Assembly: GCF_013407855.1 (NCBI RefSeq)
Contig: NZ_JACBZH010000001.1
Location: 6,262,001-6,326,000, forward strand
Reading direction: 5' to 3'
Source of the DNA: Actinopolymorpha rutila
GTDB lineage: Bacteria > Actinomycetota > Actinomycetes > Propionibacteriales > Actinopolymorphaceae
Length of the DNA: 64,000 nucleotides
Shown: piece by piece, positions 41,043 through 49,873 of the stretch
How positions within the stretch are numbered: the stretch's first letter is position 1
Layout of the letters: the number at the start of each line of letters is the position of its first letter
Position numbers and translations under genes: made by a program
Notes under the pieces: generated by a model
What the model was told of the DNA's origin: nothing
Seen by the model: the letters and a program-made list of their open reading frames with translations, nothing else
Database searches by the model: none

Positions 41043-41972
41043 ATGTCCGACAGACCGGACAGCCTGCACAACGCGGACGGGCCCGCGATCGCCCGGTTCG
41101 GGCTCGGCGGGGCCGACAATGCCGTCGATCCGTGGTCGAAGGCGGCAGCGGAGAACTTCCCGGTCGCGCTGCGGGTGGTGCCCGTACGTATCCGGCAGGA
41201 CCTGGAGGCGGTCTACCGCTACACCCGGCACGTCCACGACATCGGGGACGAGTCACCCGCCGACCGGTCGGCGGTGCTCGAGCGGCTGGCCGGCATCGAG
41301 GCGGACGTCCGCGCGCTCTACCACGGTGACCCGGTGAACGATCCCGTCGTCGCCGACCTCGCCTCGCTGGTGGCCAGGCAGCGGATACCCGCCGATCCGT
41401 TGCTACGGCTGGTCGAGGCCAACCGGCGCGACCAGCGCGTCCACCGGTACGACACGTTCGCGGACCTGCTCGACCACTGCCACTACTCCGCGGACCCCGT
41501 GGGCGAACTCGTCCTGCTCGTCTTCGGCCGGGCCACCGCCGAACGCGTCCGCCGCTCGAACCAGATCTGTACGGCACTTCAGCTGCTGGAGCACTGGCAG
41601 GACGTGGGCGAGGACTACCGCCAGGGCCGGATCTACCTGCCGCGGGAGGACCTGCGGGCGTTCACCGTCGGCGAGGAGGAGCTCGGCCAACCCCGGGCGA
41701 GCGAGGCCCTGCGAGCGCTGATCGCCTTCGAGACCGCCCGGGCAAGGAACCTGCTGGAGGCGGGCGCACCGCTGCTGGGCACCCTGTCGGGCTGGGCGCG
41801 GGTGAGCCTCGCGGGCTACGTCGCGGGCGGGCGGGCCACCTGTTCGGCGCTTCGCCGCGCCGACTACGACCCGCTGCGCCGGGTGCCGCGGCCCACGTCG
41901 CCGGTGATCGCCGGGGCCTGGCTGCGGAGCATGTTCGGTTCCCGGCGTACTCCGGCCGGTCGCCGGGGATGA
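41043..41972 (+). CDS. hpnC: Squalene synthase subunit HpnC
   Basis: 309 residues. Squalene/phytoene synthase fold with Asp-rich motifs RYTRHVHDIGDE and HWQDVGEDYRQGR. HpnC converts presqualene diphosphate to hydroxysqualene in the HpnCDE route. First gene of a seven-gene operon; ATG with AAGGAG upstream. Usual length. Followed by hpnD after 7 nt. Confidence 0.94.
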   Translation: MSDRPDSLHNADGPAIARFGLGGADNAVDPWSKAAAENFPVALRVVPVRIRQDLEAVYRYTRHVHDIGDESPADRSAVLERLAGIEADVRALYHGDPVNDPVVADLASLVARQRIPADPLLRLVEANRRDQRVHRYDTFADLLDHCHYSADPVGELVLLVFGRATAERVRRSNQICTALQLLEHWQDVGEDYRQGRIYLPREDLRAFTVGEEELGQPRASEALRALIAFETARARNLLEAGAPLLGTLSGWARVSLAGYVAGGRATCSALRRADYDPLRRVPRPTSPVIAGAWLRSMFGSRRTPAGRRG

Positions 41973-41979
41973 GAAGGGG

Positions 41980-42960
41980 ATGAACGTCGACCAGGCCTAC
42001 CGCGAGTGTGCGGCGATCACCCGCCGGGAGGCACGGAACTTCTCGTACGGCATCGCACTGCTTCCCGGGCCGAAGCGGCGCGCCCTGTCGGCGGTGTGCG
42101 CCATGGCCCGCCGCGTTTACGACATCGGCGACGGCGACCTGCCCGTGGCCGAGAAGCTGCGCCGGCTGGCGGTGGTGCGCACCCAGGTCGAACGGCTCCT
42201 GGCCGGTCCGCCGCCCGATCCCGGCGAGCCCACCGACTCCACCGAGCCGGCGGCCGACCCGGTGGTGGTCGCACTGGCCGACGCCGCGCGGCGGTTCCCG
42301 ATCCGGCTGGACGCCCTCCTCGAACTCCTCGACGGGTGCGAGGCCGATGTCCGGGGGATGCGGTACAAGACGTTCGAGGACCTGGTGGGCTACTGCCGGC
42401 AGGTCGGTGGCTCGGTGGGCCGGTTGTCGCTCGGAGTGTTCGACCCGCTGTCCTACGCCGAGGCCGAGCCGCTCGCGGACACCCTCGGCGTCGCGGTGCA
42501 GCTCACCTGCCTCATCCGCGACCTGTACGACGACCGGCTGCGCGGCCGGATCTACCTCCCGGCGGCCGACCTGGACGACTACGCCTGCACCCTGGAACTC
42601 CGCGAGCCACGCGAGCCACACGAGTCACACGAACGCCGCGAGGGACCCGACACCGGGCATGGTGACGGCGAGCCGCGCTCCGGCGCCGCCGACGAGGGCC
42701 TGCTCGACCCGGACAGCTTCGCAGACCTGGTGCGGTTCGAGGCGAACCGCACGCGGGCGTGGTACGTCCGCGGCCTCACCCTGCTGCCGCTGCTGGACCG
42801 CCGCAGCCGGTCGTGCACGGCGGCGATCGCGGGGGTCCACCTGCGGCTGCTCGACCGGATCAGCGCCGACCCCGACCTCGTCCGCACCCAGCGCCTGGAG
42901 TCGCCGACCGGGGCGAGGCTGGCGGCGGCGGCGCGGGCGCTGACCCGAGGTGACGCATGA
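41980..42960 (+). CDS. hpnD: Presqualene diphosphate synthase HpnD
   Basis: 326 residues. MARRVYDIGDGDLP and LIRDLYDDRLRGRIYLP carry the Asp-rich motifs for condensing two farnesyl diphosphates. A hydrophilic insertion of ~35 residues (about 206-240) is partly made of a 9-bp repeat (REP/HES stutter, 42601-42636), placed where a surface loop would be. ATG start with GAAGGGG upstream. ATGA overlap with hpnE. Confidence 0.94.
   Translation: MNVDQAYRECAAITRREARNFSYGIALLPGPKRRALSAVCAMARRVYDIGDGDLPVAEKLRRLAVVRTQVERLLAGPPPDPGEPTDSTEPAADPVVVALADAARRFPIRLDALLELLDGCEADVRGMRYKTFEDLVGYCRQVGGSVGRLSLGVFDPLSYAEAEPLADTLGVAVQLTCLIRDLYDDRLRGRIYLPAADLDDYACTLELREPREPHESHERREGPDTGHGDGEPRSGAADEGLLDPDSFADLVRFEANRTRAWYVRGLTLLPLLDRRSRSCTAAIAGVHLRLLDRISADPDLVRTQRLESPTGARLAAAARALTRGDA
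42601..42636. repeat. 9-bp coding repeat, four copies, in hpnD
   Basis: CGCGAGCCA twice, then CACGAGTCA and CACGAACGC (42601-42636). Frame kept; the encoded loop is absent from the usual HpnD length. Confidence 0.75.
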
Positions 42961-44366
42961 CGTCGGTCGTGGTGGTCGGCGGCGGCCTGGCGGGGATCGC
43001 GGCCGCGGTCCGGCTGGCCGACCGGGGTGCCCGGGTGACGCTGCTGGAGGCGCGCGCGCACCTGGGCGGTGCGACGTACTCACTGGACCGGCCAGCGGTC
43101 GCCGGCCGGTCCGGCCTGGTCGCCGACACCGGTCAGCACGTGTTCCTGCGGTGCTACCACGCCTACCGCGCCCTGCTGGAACGCCTCGACGTGGCCGCGC
43201 TCGCACCGGTGCAGGACCATCTGGCGATCCCGGTGCTGCGACCGGGCGAGCATGCGGACAGGCCGGACTGGATCTACCGCACCCGGCGCGGACCGGCGCC
43301 GCTGCACCTGGCCCGGTCGCTGGTGGCGTACAAGCCGTTGACCCCGCTGGAACGGCTCCGCGCCGGCACGGCCACGCTCGCGCTGCGCCGGGTCGACCCG
43401 GACGACCCGCGCCGGGACACCGCGACATTCGGCGAGTGGCTGCGCGAACGCCGCCAGTCCGGGCGGGCGATCGAGCGCCTGTGGGGGGTGATCGCGGTCG
43501 CCGCGCTGAACCTCCCACCGGACGAGGCGTCCCTCGCGCTGGCCGCCAAGGTGTTCCGCACCGCGTTCCTCGGCCGGCCCGAGGCGGCCGACCTCGGCGT
43601 ACCCACGGTGTCCCTGCGGCAGTTGCACGCCCAGCCGGCGGGCCGGCTGCTGGAAAGCCTCGGGGTCGACGTACGCACCAACGCGAAGGTGCTGGCCATC
43701 GAGCCGGTTTCCGATGTCGGCACCGACCCGGCCACCGAGCGGTTCGTCGTGCGTACGCGTACCGGCGAACTCTCCGCGGACGCCGTGGTGGTAGCGGTCC
43801 CGCACCAGGCCGCCGCCCGGCTGGTGCCGGCCCGCGCGGTGCCCGACGAGGGGCGGGAACGCTGGGCCCGGTTGGGTTCGGCACCCATCGTCAACGTCCA
43901 CTTGCGCTACGACCGCCGGGTGACGGCGTTCCCGTACGCCGGTGCGCTCGACTCGCCCGTGCAGTGGATCTTCGACCGTACGCGCGCCGCGGGAGTGGAC
44001 CGCGGCCAGTACCTCGTGGTGTCGGTGTCGGCCGCGCACGCCGAGGTCGCCATGCCCACCGAGGAACTCCGCCGTACGTACGCCAACGCGGTGGACGACC
44101 TGCTCCCGGGCGCGCGCAGCGCCCAGGTGGTCGAGTCGTTCGTCACCCGCGAACCCCACGCCACGTTCCGCCAGGTCCCCGGCACGGCGGCGTTGCGTCC
44201 ACCCACCCACACCGGACTTCCCGGGCTCACCCTCGCCGGCGCGTGGACCGCCACGGGGTGGCCGGACACCATGGAGGGCGCGGTACGCAGCGGCCTGCGG
44301 GCGGCGGACGCGCTCTCCCTCACCAGGACCCCGACTTCGCGACCCCTTGGAGAGGCCCTGCCATGA
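42957..44366 (+). CDS. hpnE: Hydroxysqualene dehydroxylase HpnE
   Basis: 469 residues. FAD-binding VVVVGGGLAGIAAAVRLADRG at 4-24, then DTGQHVFLRCYHAYR and the C-terminal FAD segment GLTLAGAWTATGWPDTMEGAVRSG. Reduces hydroxysqualene to squalene, last step of HpnCDE. ATG overlaps hpnD stop (ATGA). The next gene overlaps its own stop in the same way. Confidence 0.94.
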   Translation: MTSVVVVGGGLAGIAAAVRLADRGARVTLLEARAHLGGATYSLDRPAVAGRSGLVADTGQHVFLRCYHAYRALLERLDVAALAPVQDHLAIPVLRPGEHADRPDWIYRTRRGPAPLHLARSLVAYKPLTPLERLRAGTATLALRRVDPDDPRRDTATFGEWLRERRQSGRAIERLWGVIAVAALNLPPDEASLALAAKVFRTAFLGRPEAADLGVPTVSLRQLHAQPAGRLLESLGVDVRTNAKVLAIEPVSDVGTDPATERFVVRTRTGELSADAVVVAVPHQAAARLVPARAVPDEGRERWARLGSAPIVNVHLRYDRRVTAFPYAGALDSPVQWIFDRTRAAGVDRGQYLVVSVSAAHAEVAMPTEELRRTYANAVDDLLPGARSAQVVESFVTREPHATFRQVPGTAALRPPTHTGLPGLTLAGAWTATGWPDTMEGAVRSGLRAADALSLTRTPTSRPLGEALP

Positions 44367-45388
44367 CGCTGCTCCCCACCGAACTCCGCATCGCCGAGAC
44401 CCACCGGATGGTCGAGCCCGTCCTGCTCGCCGCACTCGACCGGCTCGACGCGGACACCCGGCGCGCCTGCGGCTACCACCTCGGCTTCTGGGACTCCGAC
44501 GGCCAGTTCCCGGCCGAACCCATCACCCGCGGCAAGGGCCTTCGTTCGGTTCTCGCGGTGCTGTCCGCGCAGGCTGCGCAGGCTCCGCCGGAGGTGGGCG
44601 TTCCGGCCGCGCTCGCCTGCGAACTCGTGCACAACTTCTCGCTGCTGCACGACGACGTGATCGACGGCGACACCGAACGCCGGCACCGGCCGACGGTGTG
44701 GGCGCGGTTCGGCGTGCCCGACGCGATCCTCGCGGGCGACGCGCTGCTGTCCCTGGCCAACGAGGTGCTCGCCGAGGCCGACTCCGTTCATGTCCACGTG
44801 GCCGTACGCCGGCTGGGTGAGACCGTGCGGCAGCTGATCGCGGGCCAGACCGCCGACATCGCGTTCGAGAAGCGCGACGACGTGACGCTCGCGGAGTGCA
44901 CGAGCATGGCCGCGGACAAGACGGCCGCCCTGCTGGCGTGTTCGGCCTCGCTCGGCGCCGTGCTAGCGGGCGCGCCGGCCACGCTGCTGGCGGCGCTGAC
45001 GACGTTCGGCCGGCACGTGGGCATGGCGTTCCAGCTCACCGACGACCTGCTCGGCATCTGGGGCGACCCGGTGCGCACCGGCAAGCCGGTGTTGTCCGAC
45101 CTGCGGGCGCGGAAGAAGTCCGTTCCGGTGGTCGCCGCGCTCACCGCGCCGACGATGGCCGCGGACGAGTTGCGCGACCTCTACCGCCGGCCCGACCCGC
45201 TGGACGAGACCGAGCTCGCCCGGGCCGCGTCCCTGGTCGAGCAGGCCGGTGGCCGCGGCTGGACCGAGGACGAGGCGGACCGCCAGCTCGCGTCCGGGAT
45301 CCGTGCGCTGGCCACGGTCGACCTGCCCGGCCCGGTGCGCGACGACCTGACCCGGATCGCGGGCCAGCTGCGTGGACGGAGCACCTGA
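44363..45388 (+). CDS. Polyprenyl diphosphate synthase (farnesyl/geranylgeranyl type)
   Basis: 341 residues. First Asp-rich motif LLHDDVIDGD, second LTDDLLGIWGD, GKGLR for pyrophosphate, and KKSVPVVAAL. Builds prenyl diphosphates from IPP and DMAPP; in this operon it probably supplies farnesyl diphosphate to HpnD. ATG overlaps hpnE stop as ATGA. Its stop and the next ATG share one base (TGATG). Confidence 0.92.
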   Translation: MTLLPTELRIAETHRMVEPVLLAALDRLDADTRRACGYHLGFWDSDGQFPAEPITRGKGLRSVLAVLSAQAAQAPPEVGVPAALACELVHNFSLLHDDVIDGDTERRHRPTVWARFGVPDAILAGDALLSLANEVLAEADSVHVHVAVRRLGETVRQLIAGQTADIAFEKRDDVTLAECTSMAADKTAALLACSASLGAVLAGAPATLLAALTTFGRHVGMAFQLTDDLLGIWGDPVRTGKPVLSDLRARKKSVPVVAALTAPTMAADELRDLYRRPDPLDETELARAASLVEQAGGRGWTEDEADRQLASGIRALATVDLPGPVRDDLTRIAGQLRGRST

Positions 45389-47334
45389 TGGCCGGCCTGT
45401 CCCCGTACCCGGAGTACCACAAGGCCCCGGAGCCCCAGAAGCATCCGGACGACGACGCGCAGGCCCACGCGGCGCTGGAACGTGCCGTCGAGCACCTGCT
45501 GGACCTGCAGGACCCCGCCGGCTGGTGGAAGGGCGAGCTGGAGACCAACGTCACGATGGACGCCGAGGACCTGCTGATGCGGCAGTTCCTCGGCGTACGC
45601 ACCGACGAGCAGACCACGCAGTCGGCGGCCTGGATCCGAAGCCAGCAACGCGACGACGGCTCGTGGGCGAACTTCCGGTTCGGGCCGGGCGACGTGTCCA
45701 CGTCGGTGGAGGCCTACGTCGCGCTTCGGCTGGCCGGTGACGACCCCGACGACCAGCACCTCAAGCAGGCGCGTCAATTCATCCTTGACAACGGCGGAGT
45801 CGAGGCCGCCCGGGTGTTCACGAAGATCTGGCTGTCGTTGTTCGGCGAGTGGAGCTGGGACGACGTGCCGGCGCTGCCTCCGGAGATCGTGCTCGCCCCC
45901 CACTGGGTGCCGTTCAACGTGTACGACTGGGGCTGCTGGGCACGGCAGACCCTCGTGCCCCTCACCATCCTCGGCGCACTCCGGCCGAACCGCCCGCTCG
46001 GGGTGAGCATCGACGAGCTGCGCACCGGGACGCCCGAACCGCCACCGGACCGGGCGACCACCTGGCGGGGCGCGTTCGCCCGGCTGGACCGGGCCCTGCA
46101 CCGCTACGAACGCCACCCGGTCAGGTCCGTGCGCAGGCTGGCCTTGCGCCGGGCCGCGGAGTGGGTCGTCGCCCGGCAGGAGAAGGACGGCTGCTGGGGC
46201 GGCATCCAGCCGCCGTGGGTCTACTCCCTGATGGCGCTGCACGCGCTCGGCTACCCACTGGACCACCCGGTGCTGACCGCGGGCCTGGCCGGCTGGGAAC
46301 GCTTCACCATTCGCGAGGACACCCCGCACGGCACCGTACGCCGGATCGAGGCGTGCCAGTCGCCGGTCTGGGACACCGCACTCGCCCTGGTCGCGCTCGG
46401 CGACGCGGGCGTGGACCCCGAGGCCGGCCCGATGGTGCGGGCGCGCGACTGGCTGCTGGCGGAGGAGATCACCGTACGCGGCGACTGGTCCGTGCGGCGG
46501 CCGCGCACCCCCGCCGGCGGCTGGGCGTTCGAGTTCGACAACGACGGCTACCCCGACACCGACGACACCGCCGAGGTGGTGCTCGGCCTGCGCCGGACCG
46601 CCGAGACGCCGCGGCTGGAGGAGGCGGTACGCCGGGCCCGGGTCTGGCTGCGCGGCATGCAGTGCCGGGACGGCGGCTGGGGCGCGTTCGACGCCGACAA
46701 CACCCGCGAACTCGCCTACCAGTTGCCGTTCTGCGACTTCGGTGCGGTCATCGACCCGCCCAGTGCGGACGTCACCGCGCACGTGGTGGAGATGTTCGCC
46801 CACGAGGGGCACGCCGACGACCCGGAGGTGCAGCGCGCGGTGCGCTGGCTGCTGGACGCGCAGGAGGCGGACGGGTCGTGGTACGGCCGGTGGGGCGCGA
46901 ACCACGTCTACGGCACCGGCGCGGTCCTGCCCGCGCTGGTGGCCGCCGGACTCTCCCGGCACGACCGCGCGGTCGTCCGGGGCGCGAACTGGCTGACCGC
47001 GCACCAGAACGCCGACGGCGGCTGGGGCGAGGACCTGCGCTCCTACTCCGACCCGTCCTGGGTGGGCCGGGGTACGTCGACCGCATCCCAGACCGCGTGG
47101 GCACTGCTGGCGCTGGAGGCCGCCGGGCTGCGCGACTCCCCCGCCGTCCGCGCCGGTATCGCCTGGCTGGTGGCCACCCAGCGCCCCGACGGTGGCTGGG
47201 ACGAGCCGCAGTTCACCGGCACCGGGTTCCCCGGCGACTTCTACATCAACTACCACCTCTACCGGCTGGTGTTCCCGGTCACCGCGCTCGGCCGGCTGCT
47301 CGCCCCGGCAGGCGACCCACAGGACCGAGCGTGA
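45388..47334 (+). CDS. shc: Squalene-hopene cyclase
   Basis: 648 residues. DTDD at 390-393 is the protonating DXDD motif. QW repeats are many (for example [48 protein letters not shown]). Cyclises squalene to hopene/hopanol at the membrane surface. Normal length. Eleven nt after its stop lies the next gene. Confidence 0.96.
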
Positions 47335-47345
47335 GGGGAGCTGCG

Positions 47346-48866
47346 ATGCCGGCGGAGTACGTCCTGTGCGCACCGACCCGGTTGGAGGCGGCCGCCGTCC
47401 GGCGCGGCCTGGCCGGAGACGCCTCCGCCAGGGTGCTGCGTACGGGCATGGGCCGGCGGCACGCCGAGAGCGCGGCTCACCTGCTCGCACACACCGGCCC
47501 GCCGCCGTCAGGCGTCGCGGTGACCGGGGTGGCCGGCGCGCTCGACCCCGGCCTCGCACCGGGCGACGTGGTGGTGGCGACGGAGGTACGCGCGGGCGAG
47601 CGCACCGTCGCGTGCCCGAGCGCGCAACTGCTGGCCGCCCGGCTGGCCCGGCTCGGCCTGACCATACGCACCGGGCCCGTGGTGAGCCGGGAGCGGCTGG
47701 TCAGCGGAGCCGCCCGGACCGCGCTGCGCGACACCGGCGCCCTCGCCGTCGACCTGGAGTCCGGCTGGCTCGCCGCCGGCCTGCCCACCTCCACCGCGAC
47801 CGCGTGCGTGCGGGTGGTCGCCGACCCGGCGACCGGTCCGTTGTGGCGGCCGGTGACGCTCGCCCACCTACGGACCGCGGTACGCACGCTCGCCACCGTC
47901 GCGCCTGCCCTGGCCGACTGGGGTGCGGCGACCGGGGCGCGGACGGTCCTGCTTCCCAACCCGCGCTCGTTCTGCGCCGGTGTGGAACGCGCCATCGACA
48001 TCGTGGAGCGGGTCCTCGCCCAGCGCGGCGCTCCGGTCTACGTCCGCAAGCAGATCGTGCACAACTCCCACGTCGTCGCCCGGTTGGAGGGCCTCGGCGC
48101 GGTGTTCGTCGAGGAGCTGGACGAGGTGCCCGCGGGCGCCACCGTCGTCTTCTCCGCCCACGGTGTGTCTCCCGGCGTACGGAAGGAGGCCGCCGCCCGC
48201 GGCCTCGGCGTCGTGGACGCGACCTGTCCCCTGGTGGCGAAGGTGCACAGCGAGGCACGCCGGTTCGCCGACCGCGGCGACACCGTGCTGTTCATCGGAC
48301 ACGACGGGCACGAGGAGACCCAGGGCACCGTCGGCGAACGCCCGGGCAGCACGGTACTGGTGGAGGACCTCGCCGGCGCCGCCCGCGTGCGGGTACCCGA
48401 CCCGGACCAGGTGTCCTACCTCGTACAGACCACGCTCGGAGTGGACGAGGTCGCCGAGATCGTCGACGTCCTGCACGAACGCTTCCCCGCGCTGCAGGGG
48501 CCCGCGTCGGACGACATCTGCTACGCCACCACCAACCGTCAGCACGCCCTGCGGTCGGTCGCCCGGCAGGCCGATCTCGTCCTGGTGGTCGGCTCCCGGA
48601 ACTCCTCCAACGCCAACCGGCTGGTCGAGCTCGCCCGCCGCCTGGGCACCCCGGCACACCTGATCGACGACCCGGGCGGCATCGACCTCGCCTGGCTCAC
48701 CGACGCGGCGACGGTCGCGGTCACCGCGGGCGCATCGACGCCCGCGTCCCTGGTGGACGCGACCGTCGACGCGCTGCGCGGCCTCGGCCCGGTGGACGTG
48801 CGCGAGCACGTGGTCACCACCGAGGACATCGAGTTCACCCTGCCGAAGGAGGTGCGCAACCCATGA
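47346..48866 (+). CDS. Fusion of HpnG-like nucleosidase and IspH (HMBPP reductase)
   Basis: 506 residues, one uninterrupted frame. Residues 1-~195 resemble HpnG/MTA-SAH nucleosidases: [31 protein letters not shown], catalytic-type DLESGWLA; expected to release adenine from adenosylhopane. Residues ~200-506 are a complete IspH with Fe-S cysteines Cys210 (SFCAG), Cys294 (ATCPL), Cys392 (DICYATTN), plus SAHGVSP and GHEETQGT. No ATG or GTG near the junction permits a separate IspH start. The ATG at 47346 follows GAGGGGAG. The stop overlaps hpnH (ATGA). IspH reduces HMBPP to IPP and DMAPP. Confidence 0.93.
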
Positions 48867-49873
48867 CCATGCCGATGCGGCAGAGCCTGCGAATCGGGCG
48901 GTACCTGCTGGCCCAGCGCCTGCGTGGCCGGGAGAAGTTTCCCCTGCTGGTCGAACTCGAGCCGCTGTTCGCCTGCAACCTGCAGTGCGCGGGCTGCGGC
49001 AAGATCCAGCACCCGGCCGACGAACTCCGTCGCCGGATGCCGGTCGAGCAGGCGGTGGCCGCGATGGAGGAGTGCGGCGCACCGATGGTGTCCATCGCCG
49101 GCGGCGAACCACTCATGCACCCGGAGATCGACCGGATGGTCGACGAACTCGTGCGGCGGAAGATCTACGTCTTCCTGTGCACCAACGCGTTGCTGGTACG
49201 CAAGTGGTGGGACCGCTTCGACTTCCGGCCGTCGCGCTACTTCGCGTTCGCCGTGCACATCGACGGCCTGCGCGAACGCCACGACGCGTCGGTGGACCAC
49301 GATGGCGGTTTCGACGAGGCGGTGGCGGCGGTCAGGTTCCTGCAGGCACAGGGATTTCGGGTCACCACGAACACCACGTTCTTCACCAGCGACAGCCCGC
49401 AGAACGTCATCGACGTGTTGGACTTCCTCAACGACGACCTGCACGTCGACCAGATGATGGTGTCGCCGGCGTACGCGTACGAGAAGGCACCCGACCAGGA
49501 CCACTTCCTCGGCGTCACCCAGACCAGGGAGCTGTTCCGCAAGGCGTTCGCGAACGGCAACCGTGCGCGCTGGCGGCTCAACCACTCACCGCTGTTCCTG
49601 GACTTCCTCGAGGGCAAGGTGGACTTTCCCTGTACTGCTTGGGGAATCCCGTCGTACTCGCTGTTCGGCTGGCAGCGGCCATGTTACCTGATGAGCGACG
49701 GGTACGCCGCGACCTACCAGGAACTGGTCGAGGAGACCGACTGGGACAGCTACGGCCGGGGCCGGGACCCGCGGTGTGCCAACTGCATGGCCCACTGTGG
49801 GTACGAACCGACGGCGGTGCTGGCCACGATGGGGTCGCTGCGCCAGTCGCTGCGGGCGATCGCCGGCGACTGA
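48863..49873 (+). CDS. hpnH: Adenosyl-hopene transferase HpnH (radical SAM)
   Basis: 336 residues. CX3CX2C cluster motif CNLQCAGC at Cys38, Cys42, Cys45, [10 protein letters not shown] for SAM, SPYM-like C-terminus with [13 protein letters not shown]. Attaches a 5'-deoxyadenosyl group to diploptene. It acts before HpnG. ATG overlaps the fusion gene stop. Last gene of the operon; ispG and dxs, found next to hpnH in Streptomyces, are not here. Confidence 0.94.

What the first reader, a model, noticed from the sequence alone, without database searches (positions are those of the whole stretch)
47346..48866. In-frame fusion of an HpnG-like nucleosidase with IspH inside a hopanoid operon
The sequence shows one uninterrupted 506-codon frame. 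Residues 1-195 carry nucleosidase motifs ([22 protein letters not shown]); residues 200-506 are a full-length IspH with all three Fe-S cysteines (210, 294, 392). Codons around the junction contain no ATG or GTG, and the nearest GTGs upstream lie within the nucleosidase, so separate translation of IspH is unlikely. HpnG (adenosylhopane to ribosylhopane) and IspH (HMBPP to IPP/DMAPP) act at opposite ends of the same pathway. In Streptomyces the two are separate genes, to my recollection. The fusion may co-set dosage, or couple an Fe-S, oxygen-sensitive step to hopanoid tailoring.
Basis: partly seen in the sequence, partly recalled or inferred. Interest (0 to 1): 0.7.

Follow-up and report, generated by a model that had tools for sequence, protein, structure and literature searches.

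The report
Hopanoid nucleosidase fused to IspH
One soil-bacterium gene joins an enzyme that probably trims a membrane lipid (a hopanoid) to one that makes the lipid's building blocks; the fusion is shared by many actinobacteria, and worn-down copies of it sit beside protein-shell (encapsulin) terpene genes.

Summary
Window 47346-48866 is one 506-codon frame: an HpnG-like nucleosidase (about 1-195) joined almost without linker to a full IspH (200-506), between squalene-hopene cyclase and hpnH in a tight hopanoid operon. It is no assembly error: of 93 genomes with a nucleosidase match among 394 of the class, 49 have the junction in frame (46 complete, two cut by contig ends, one frame-broken further on), as do four genomes outside the class. 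Catalytic residues are conserved in both halves. It is not the only IspH: 60 of 60 fusion genomes have another IspH match, three of these partial or in pieces. Fused IspH, one MAG excepted, lies in a clade apart from housekeeping IspH (100/99), so I read it as a hopanoid-dedicated IspH made in fixed ratio with HpnG. No adjacent-but-separate pair was seen.

Unexpected: the same clade holds IspH encoded beside encapsulin-type prenyl transferases, mostly with family 2B shell genes. Fifteen of these keep a stripped nucleosidase remnant lacking the catalytic acids, so they probably descend from the fusion. The 'sole, essential ispH' idea fails; coupling is untested. My paper searches showed no description of fusion or remnant.

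The parts
47346..48866 (+). HpnG-like nucleosidase / IspH fusion gene, 506 aa; ATG 11 bases after the SHC stop, purine-rich ribosome-site-like stretch before it; stop overlaps the hpnH start (ATGA)
47346..47930 (+). nucleosidase half (residues 1-195); catalytic positions E14, E138, D160 by analogy with MTA/SAH nucleosidase E12, E174, D197 (roles recalled)
   Evidence: Pfam PF01048; profile match to MTAN structures; Foldseek match to MTAN; conserved in every distinct fused domain that has a letter at the site
47943..48863 (+). IspH half (residues 200-506), with C210, C294, C392 and H239, H272, H322, E324, T362, S420, S421, N422, S464
41043..41972 (+). hpnC, squalene synthase
   Evidence: TIGR03464 280.4 bits, over cut-off 250.45
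41980..42960 (+). hpnD-like, presqualene diphosphate synthase
   Evidence: best match TIGR03465, 216.3 bits, below its cut-off of 278.6
42957..44366 (+). hpnE, hydroxysqualene dehydroxylase
   Evidence: TIGR03467 405.6 bits, over cut-off 283.05
44363..45388 (+). polyprenyl diphosphate synthase, related to family 2 encapsulin cargo type 4 (399.5 bits, below the cut-off of 450)
   Evidence: scanned within a longer frame; start read
45388..47334 (+). squalene-hopene cyclase
   Evidence: TIGR01507 717.1 bits (scanned within a longer frame); start read
48863..49873 (+). hpnH, radical SAM adenosyl-hopene transferase
   Evidence: TIGR03470 509.2 bits

Best explanation
This is a bifunctional protein made by an old fusion of hpnG with a duplicated ispH, inside the actinobacterial hopanoid operon. 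The N-terminal half most likely removes adenine from adenosylhopane (the HpnH product) to give ribosylhopane. The C-terminal half is a working [4Fe-4S] HMBPP reductase that makes IPP and DMAPP, six C5 units being needed per squalene. The two halves share no intermediate, so the fusion probably works by dosage: it places a hopanoid-dedicated IspH, beside the housekeeping copy, under the hopanoid operon and in fixed 1:1 ratio with a tailoring enzyme. Shown here: one frame, conservation, intact active-site residues, purifying selection, a second IspH, a separate IspH clade, operon position. Inferred: both activities, the dosage role, a single 53 kDa product in the cell. Descent, inferred from trees and the remnant: the fusion is old; some lineages seem to have dropped the IspH half, and one line lost most of the nucleosidase half after its IspH moved to encapsulin-type terpene clusters.
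For: Domains, frame and operon. Junction in frame in 49 of 93 genomes with a nucleosidase match among 394 of the class, 46 of the 49 complete, and in 4 genomes outside the class. Further IspH match in 60 of 60 fusion genomes; in this genome ispG gives one match and dxs one full match plus one weak partial one, so of these three only IspH is clearly duplicated. Nucleosidase E138 and D160 in 63 of 63 distinct fused domains, E14 in 60 of 60 with a letter there; of 12 IspH cluster/substrate residues checked 11 are identical in 64 of 64 distinct fused IspH domains, the twelfth (S421) is S in 40 and A in 24. Fused IspH, L186 excepted, lies apart from housekeeping IspH with 100/99 support. AlphaFold model pLDDT 90.5, pTM 0.88; Foldseek finds IspH-HMBPP complexes (TM up to 0.94 of target) and MTA nucleosidases. 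Supply logic: close unfused relatives sit beside prenyl transferase and, in part, Dxs or IspG genes, and 19 of 40 unfused hopanoid loci have IspG and 24 of 40 Dxs nearby.
Against: No activity or protein was measured. HpnG model TIGR03468 is not passed (72.9 of 187.1 bits). Unfused lineages make do without an IspH in the cluster, so a fused IspH is not needed for the pathway. The IspG contrast (0 of 36 fused against 19 of 40 unfused loci) is confounded by one genus, g30; Dxs is near 2 of those 36 fused loci (4 of the fused loci printed, at a looser cut-off). L186, a fusion in a MAG at a contig end, carries a housekeeping-type IspH. One fusion (L091 = G340) is frame-broken inside IspH. Neither tree makes the fused rows one clade.
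Confidence: 0.72

Rival explanations
1. The IspH half has been recruited to reduce a hopanoid side-chain intermediate (for example ribosylhopane to bacteriohopanetetrol, a step whose enzyme is unknown), and is fused to HpnG because HpnG makes its substrate.
For: The enzyme from ribosylhopane to BHT is stated to be not yet established (PMC12583986, passages); IspH is a reductase; the fusions seen with flanks lie in hopanoid loci.
Against: The cluster and HMBPP-binding residues are conserved in 64 of 64 distinct fused domains, only S421 varying. Close relatives sit beside prenyl transferase, and in part Dxs and IspG, in loci where no SHC or HpnH was found in the stretches searched. HpnG-like genes beside hpnH without IspH are common (43 of 93 genomes).
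Confidence: 0.05
2. The nucleosidase half cleaves another adenosyl compound, such as 5'-deoxyadenosine or MTA/SAH, protecting the radical-SAM step of HpnH, and is not an adenosylhopane nucleosidase.
For: The closest solved structures are MTA/SAH nucleosidases; TIGR03468 is not passed.
Against: Among the nucleosidase/phosphorylase models matched in NCBIfam, HpnG scores best (72.9 bits, next 48.4); the gene lies between SHC and hpnH in most loci where both are seen; unfused genes in the same slot score alike.
Confidence: 0.13
3. The fused frame is read, but the cell uses two polypeptides, by proteolysis or an internal GTG start.
For: GTG codons lie 84, 123 and 129 bases upstream of the aligned IspH start in this gene.
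Against: No start offset is shared by all 32 loci; the junction is modelled as a helix (170-195) running into the first IspH strand (199-205) with high confidence; the gap between the two profile matches is 6-15 bases in the 58 fused loci listed (ten of them repeat a place).
Confidence: 0.07
4. Assembly or sequencing artefact that merges two genes.
For: None for this gene.
Against: Same in-frame fusion in the five other genomes of the genus searched and in many families; no adjacent separate pair was seen in the 44 unfused genomes.
Confidence: 0.005

Closest known systems
[quoted passage not shown] E. coli IspH, PDB 3ke8)
   Same: 158 identities in 307 alignment columns (51%), all three cluster cysteines and all nine substrate residues checked
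   Different: Attached to a nucleosidase, encoded in a hopanoid operon, in a clade apart from housekeeping IspH
HpnG, hopanoid-associated phosphorylase/nucleosidase (TIGR03468)
   Same: Best NCBIfam nucleosidase match, same slot between SHC and hpnH, three catalytic acids kept
   Different: Scores below the curated cut-off, as do the unfused actinobacterial genes tested; carries IspH at its C-terminus
Bifunctional IspH / ribosomal protein S1 (NF000907 model name)
   Same: IspH with an extra fused domain is already a known kind
   Different: There the partner follows IspH (206-482 of ours matches 8-280 of the 671-position model); here the partner is N-terminal and belongs to the hopanoid pathway
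Fused HpnCD in SD2 Acidobacteria and some Actinobacteria (PMC5462960, passages)
   Same: A fusion of two hopanoid-pathway genes
   Different: HpnC and HpnD both act in squalene synthesis; HpnG and IspH act at opposite ends of the route
Family 2B encapsulin prenyl-transferase operons (PMC8346489, passages)
   Same: Such loci hold the close IspH relatives, several with the nucleosidase remnant; the paper says PT systems often encode terpenoid-precursor genes
   Different: No SHC or HpnH found in the stretches searched; nucleosidase half reduced to a stub without the catalytic acids, or absent

Membership tests
IspH (TIGR00216 / PF02401) | Profile match over curated cut-off | tested here: met
   289.6 bits (cut-off 187.85) and 296.3 bits (cut-off 24.5); the narrower PRK01045 models are missed, some narrowly (413.6 of 444, 401.2 of 420, 384.8 of 389, 223.9 of 276)
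IspH (TIGR00216 / PF02401) | Three Fe-S cysteines and HMBPP-contacting residues (H41, H74, H124, E126, T167, S225, S226, N227, S269 in E. coli; roles recalled) | tested here: met
   All 12 identical in the window protein; across 64 distinct fused domains 11 of 12 invariant, S421 is S in 40 and A in 24
IspH (TIGR00216 / PF02401) | IspH fold | tested here: met
   Model pLDDT 90.5; Foldseek top hits are E. coli IspH entries, TM up to 0.94 of target
IspH (TIGR00216 / PF02401) | HMBPP reductase activity | not testable with these tools
   Needs enzyme assay or rescue test
HpnG (TIGR03468) | Score over curated cut-off 187.1 | tested here: not met
   72.9 bits; two unfused genes in the same slot of g30 genomes score 78.7 and 77.7, so the model fits these actinobacteria poorly; I call ours HpnG-like, not a formal member
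HpnG (TIGR03468) | Nucleosidase fold and catalytic acids | tested here: met
   PF01048 41.5 bits over 25.1; E14 60 of 60 with letters, E138 63 of 63, D160 63 of 63 distinct fused domains; Foldseek MTAN matches
HpnG (TIGR03468) | Position in a hopanoid cluster next to hpnH | tested here: met
   SHC - fusion - HpnH in the window and in most related loci; in some Frankia loci hpnH lies about 0.5 to 5.5 kb further on, and in L045 none was found in the stretch
HpnG (TIGR03468) | Adenosylhopane cleavage | not testable with these tools
   Needs enzyme assay

The most novel reading that the evidence does not exclude
The nucleosidase domain is also a docking module for IspH. In hopanoid operons it would place IspH at a membrane-side hopanoid complex with SHC and HpnH (IspH and HpnH being two Fe-S enzymes that could share reductant). 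After the IspH moved to encapsulin terpene operons, the nucleosidase lost its catalytic acids but a segment of roughly 110 residues with the motif CPAA-LL-GELRRRG was kept because it still ties IspH to the prenyl transferase or shell, so that precursor supply is held at the nanocompartment. If true, a dead enzyme became a targeting tag, and the fusion records how a MEP enzyme entered an encapsulin system.
Probability: 0.15. Interest if true: 0.75.

Novelty: new variant of a known kind. Interest (0 to 1): 0.5.

Why it matters
It shows that in Frankia and several other actinobacterial families isoprenoid precursor supply is hard-wired to hopanoid tailoring, with an IspH paralogue of its own. In Frankia hopanoids form the vesicle envelope that shields nitrogenase from oxygen (PMC12501873, passages), and the squalene-lipid cluster is over-produced in nodules (PMC8951365, passages; that the fusion is in that cluster is my inference), so this IspH is a natural target for study there. 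It also bears on annotation: a survey by the HpnG model's cut-off would miss this gene. The nucleosidase remnant links hopanoid operons to encapsulin-type terpene operons by descent, which the passages I read do not mention.

Tried and rejected
Rejected: assembly artefact (recurrence); the fusion as the only ispH; HpnG and IspH as adjacent separate genes elsewhere (no such pair in 44 unfused genomes with the stretches fetched; contig ends cut some of these short). A single clade of fused nucleosidases was tested and rejected (AU p 0.0008), because unfused genes of G347, G072/G050 and G118 fall among them; I read these as losses of the IspH half, but repeated fusion cannot be excluded: that tree has long branches, many open forks and an outgroup that is not clean. 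The IspH tree does not make the fused rows one clade either (4 changes).

Led nowhere: paper searches for the fusion and for the encapsulin link showed no description of either in the listings and passages I read; only open-licence PMC papers are held, so this is weak evidence of novelty. No database of domain architectures was available. PMC5462960 says in one passage that ispH clusters with shc and hpnH in SD1 Acidobacteria but in another that the cluster is ispA, shc, hpnH; I make nothing of it. Foldseek listed no nucleosidase for the remnant model (50 best of 1261 shown); the remnant is supported by sequence only. That model rests on 10 rows and is weak at residues 1-19 and 65-72.

Rows dropped and biases: trees used hand-picked rows (85 and 55 IspH rows, 56 nucleosidase rows). 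The counts used distinct sequences with score floors of 60 and 250 bits, and for the IspG/Dxs tally only distinct loci whose stored stretch runs 5 kb past the nucleosidase. One search looked at 20 IspH proteins beside a prenyl transferase (L088 apart, which is housekeeping-type in the tree): 8 have the stub, 12 do not. The shuffle test used those 8 only. The class search used a profile that contains the stub, so its ranking favours stub carriers; the 7 of 9 is not a frequency, and an eighth high match without stub coverage (G315:C19) was not fetched. Shell genes were seen for 12 of the 15 stub carriers; L058, L238 and L241 showed the prenyl transferase but no shell gene in the stretch held, and L062 and L065 (no stub) likewise. 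L243 and L244 showed only Dxs beside IspH.

Full report
The observation. Window 47346-48866 on the + strand is a single frame of 506 codons. Pfam finds PNP_UDP_1 at 20-164 and LYTB at 201-477. NCBIfam finds IspH over cut-off (TIGR00216, 289.6 bits against 187.85) and, among the nucleosidase models matched, HpnG best but below its cut-off (72.9 against 187.1). Two unfused genes in the same slot of g30 genomes score the same (78.7, 77.7), so the low score is not peculiar to this gene. I therefore say HpnG-like.

The setting. The genes form a tight operon: hpnC, hpnD, hpnE, polyprenyl synthase, SHC, the fusion, hpnH. The fusion starts 11 bases after the SHC stop, and its stop overlaps the hpnH start as ATGA. 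In the whole genome ispG gives one match and dxs one full match plus one weak partial one, neither in this window; IspH has two, one of them stand-alone.

Not an artefact, and not rare. The five other genomes of the genus searched and one of two others of the family carry the fusion over its whole length at 68-94% identity. A scan of named genomes gave whole or nearly whole fusions in Actinopolymorpha, Frankia, Protofrankia, Actinomadura, a Pseudonocardia MAG and a Solirubrobacterales MAG. Of 32 loci then in hand with both domains, 31 read in frame without a stop (three are the window itself, and L007/L034 are one place); the exception is L091, Candidatus Frankia californiensis. In 394 genomes of the class, 93 had a match to the nucleosidase profile. 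I looked at the locus of each: 49 have IspH joined in frame, 44 do not. Of the 49, 46 are complete, two are cut by contig ends on the nucleosidase side (L134, L186), and one (L098, the same place as L091) loses the frame after about 64 IspH positions. Of the 44, 43 lie beside hpnH and one (L188) is a distant nucleosidase without hopanoid genes in its stretch. No locus had the two as adjacent separate genes. In 396 genomes of the phylum 24 matched: four fusions outside the class (G471, G584, G662, G689), the window's own, eleven unfused g30 genomes, and eight weak matches without IspH in the short stretches held.

A second IspH is the rule. A PF02401 search in 60 fusion genomes found an IspH match besides the fused one in 60 of 60; in G159 and G662 it is partial and in G584 in two pieces. 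The fusion is an extra paralogue.

Both halves look active. On all distinct sequences in hand, E138 and D160 of the nucleosidase are present in 63 of 63 fused domains and E14 in 60 of 60 that have a letter there. They correspond to E174, D197 and E12 of MTA/SAH nucleosidase (roles recalled; PDB titles name Glu12 and Asp197 mutants). In 64 of 64 fused IspH domains the three cysteines, H239, H272, H322, E324, T362, S420, N422 and S464 are identical; S421 is S in 40 and A in 24. dN/dS against four congeners is 0.16-0.31 and 0.08-0.21. AlphaFold gives pLDDT 90.5 and pTM 0.88, with a helix 170-195 running into an IspH strand at 199; Foldseek matches IspH-HMBPP complexes and MTA nucleosidases.

Where the IspH half comes from. 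In a tree of 55 IspH domains the fused ones and those beside encapsulin-type prenyl transferases stand together against housekeeping IspH with 100/99 support; the window genome's second IspH lies among the housekeeping ones. Exception: L186, a fusion at a contig end in a MAG, has a housekeeping-type IspH although its nucleosidase is sister to that of L051 (100/99); its IspH is 75% identical to the other, partial, IspH of that genome, so it is not a simple copy. I leave it open.

Losses. In the nucleosidase tree the unfused genes of G347 (98/94), of G072 with G050 (inside a group with 97/96) and of G118 (98/91, with a fused one) sit among fused ones, while the g30 genes form a separate group (100/100). 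In G347 the IspH is gone and a low-complexity tail follows the nucleosidase. L064, a MAG, has SHC, IspH and hpnH with no nucleosidase found between. The simplest account is an old fusion followed by losses of either half; the trees do not force it.

The unexpected branch. IspH proteins encoded beside a prenyl transferase form one group (76/85) nested among the fused ones (99/83, 99/92). For three loci NCBIfam names the neighbours: family 2B encapsulin shells (758.3, 776.9, 769.1 bits, cut-off 400), prenyl-transferase cargo (456.5 and 472.9, cut-off 450), a terpene cyclase cargo just under its cut-off (1198.9 of 1200); in a fourth, L058, dxs and ispG. A tblastn table shows the wider pattern, with some loci lacking a shell hit. 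Of 20 such IspH proteins looked at (L088 apart), eight (L054-L056, L058-L061, L094) carry upstream, in frame, a stub that matches the nucleosidase profile around positions 60-107 with best-domain scores of 12.0 to 28.4 bits; the other 12, among them all the loci of the same order (L010, L012-L017, L234), do not. Each of the eight beats the best of 500 shuffles of itself, closest for L059 with 12.0 against 11.1. A class search with a profile that includes the stub (so biased towards stub carriers) gave as its seven best L235-L241, all with the stub at 16.0 to 24.8 bits on the nucleosidase profile, which was built without them; L243 and L244 (g30) lack it. The stub lacks the regions of E14, E138 and D160 and keeps VAD then CPAA-LL-GELRRRG; its modelled structure drew no nucleosidase in the 50 matches listed. 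All 15 stub carriers have the prenyl transferase and 12 a shell gene in the stretch held. I read the stubs as fossils of the fusion, so that this IspH line descends from an HpnG-IspH protein. Why part of the stub is still conserved is open; docking is a guess.

How it most likely works. The halves act at opposite ends of one pathway and share no intermediate, so channelling is unlikely. A fixed ratio and shared expression of a precursor enzyme with a tailoring enzyme is the economical reading. The comparison with unfused loci fits it loosely: 19 of 40 have IspG and 24 of 40 Dxs nearby, against 0 and 2 of 36 fused loci (four fused loci with Dxs at the looser cut-off), as if lineages add different MEP enzymes to the same operon. 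One genus supplies most of the unfused loci, so this is weak.

Literature. I read passages, not whole papers: PMC5462960 (HpnCD fusion), PMC4447401 (a table row for lytB and remarks on hopanoids), PMC12583986 (HpnG step, enzyme after ribosylhopane unknown), PMC8346489 (prenyl-transferase encapsulin operons often encode terpenoid-precursor genes), PMC8951365 (squalene-lipid cluster over-produced in nodules), PMC5745019 and PMC12501873 (Frankia hopanoid genes). None of these passages mentions the fusion. Searches for it; for the encapsulin link.

Verdict. Real, conserved, probably bifunctional; not the sole IspH; a new variant of a known kind (IspH fusions and hopanoid-gene fusions exist). The nucleosidase fossil beside encapsulin-type genes is the more surprising part.

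Noticed in passing
L054-L056, L058-L061, L094, L235-L241: IspH beside encapsulin-type prenyl transferase (12 of 15 with a family 2B shell gene in the stretch held) carries a remnant of the HpnG-like nucleosidase without the catalytic acids; the segment CPAA-LL-GELRRRG is conserved.
   Followed up: yes
L091:8001-9477 (same place as L098, G340): Candidatus Frankia californiensis Dd1: the junction is in frame but the frame breaks after about 64 IspH positions; decay or assembly error, not resolved.
   Followed up: partly
L186 / L266 (G159 MAG, contig start): Nucleosidase fragment fused to a housekeeping-type IspH, unlike the other fusions in the tree: domain replacement, second fusion, or MAG chimera.
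   Followed up: partly
L064:1-3481: MAG hopanoid locus with SHC, IspH, hpnH and no nucleosidase found between them.
   Followed up: partly
L139:8001-8801: HpnG-like gene with a repetitive low-complexity tail where related genomes have IspH.
   Followed up: partly
G002:C1:3476106-3476397: Two short IspH-like pieces in a congener, perhaps a broken third IspH copy.
   Followed up: no
window 44363-45388: The polyprenyl synthase of the hopanoid operon scores 399.5 bits on the family 2 encapsulin cargo model (cut-off 450), so it is kin to the encapsulin cargo enzymes.
   Followed up: no
PDB 9ql0: Top Foldseek hit is an E. coli IspH entry titled as crystallised in the presence of adenosine hemisulfate; only the title was seen, any link to adenine released by HpnG is speculation.
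   Followed up: no
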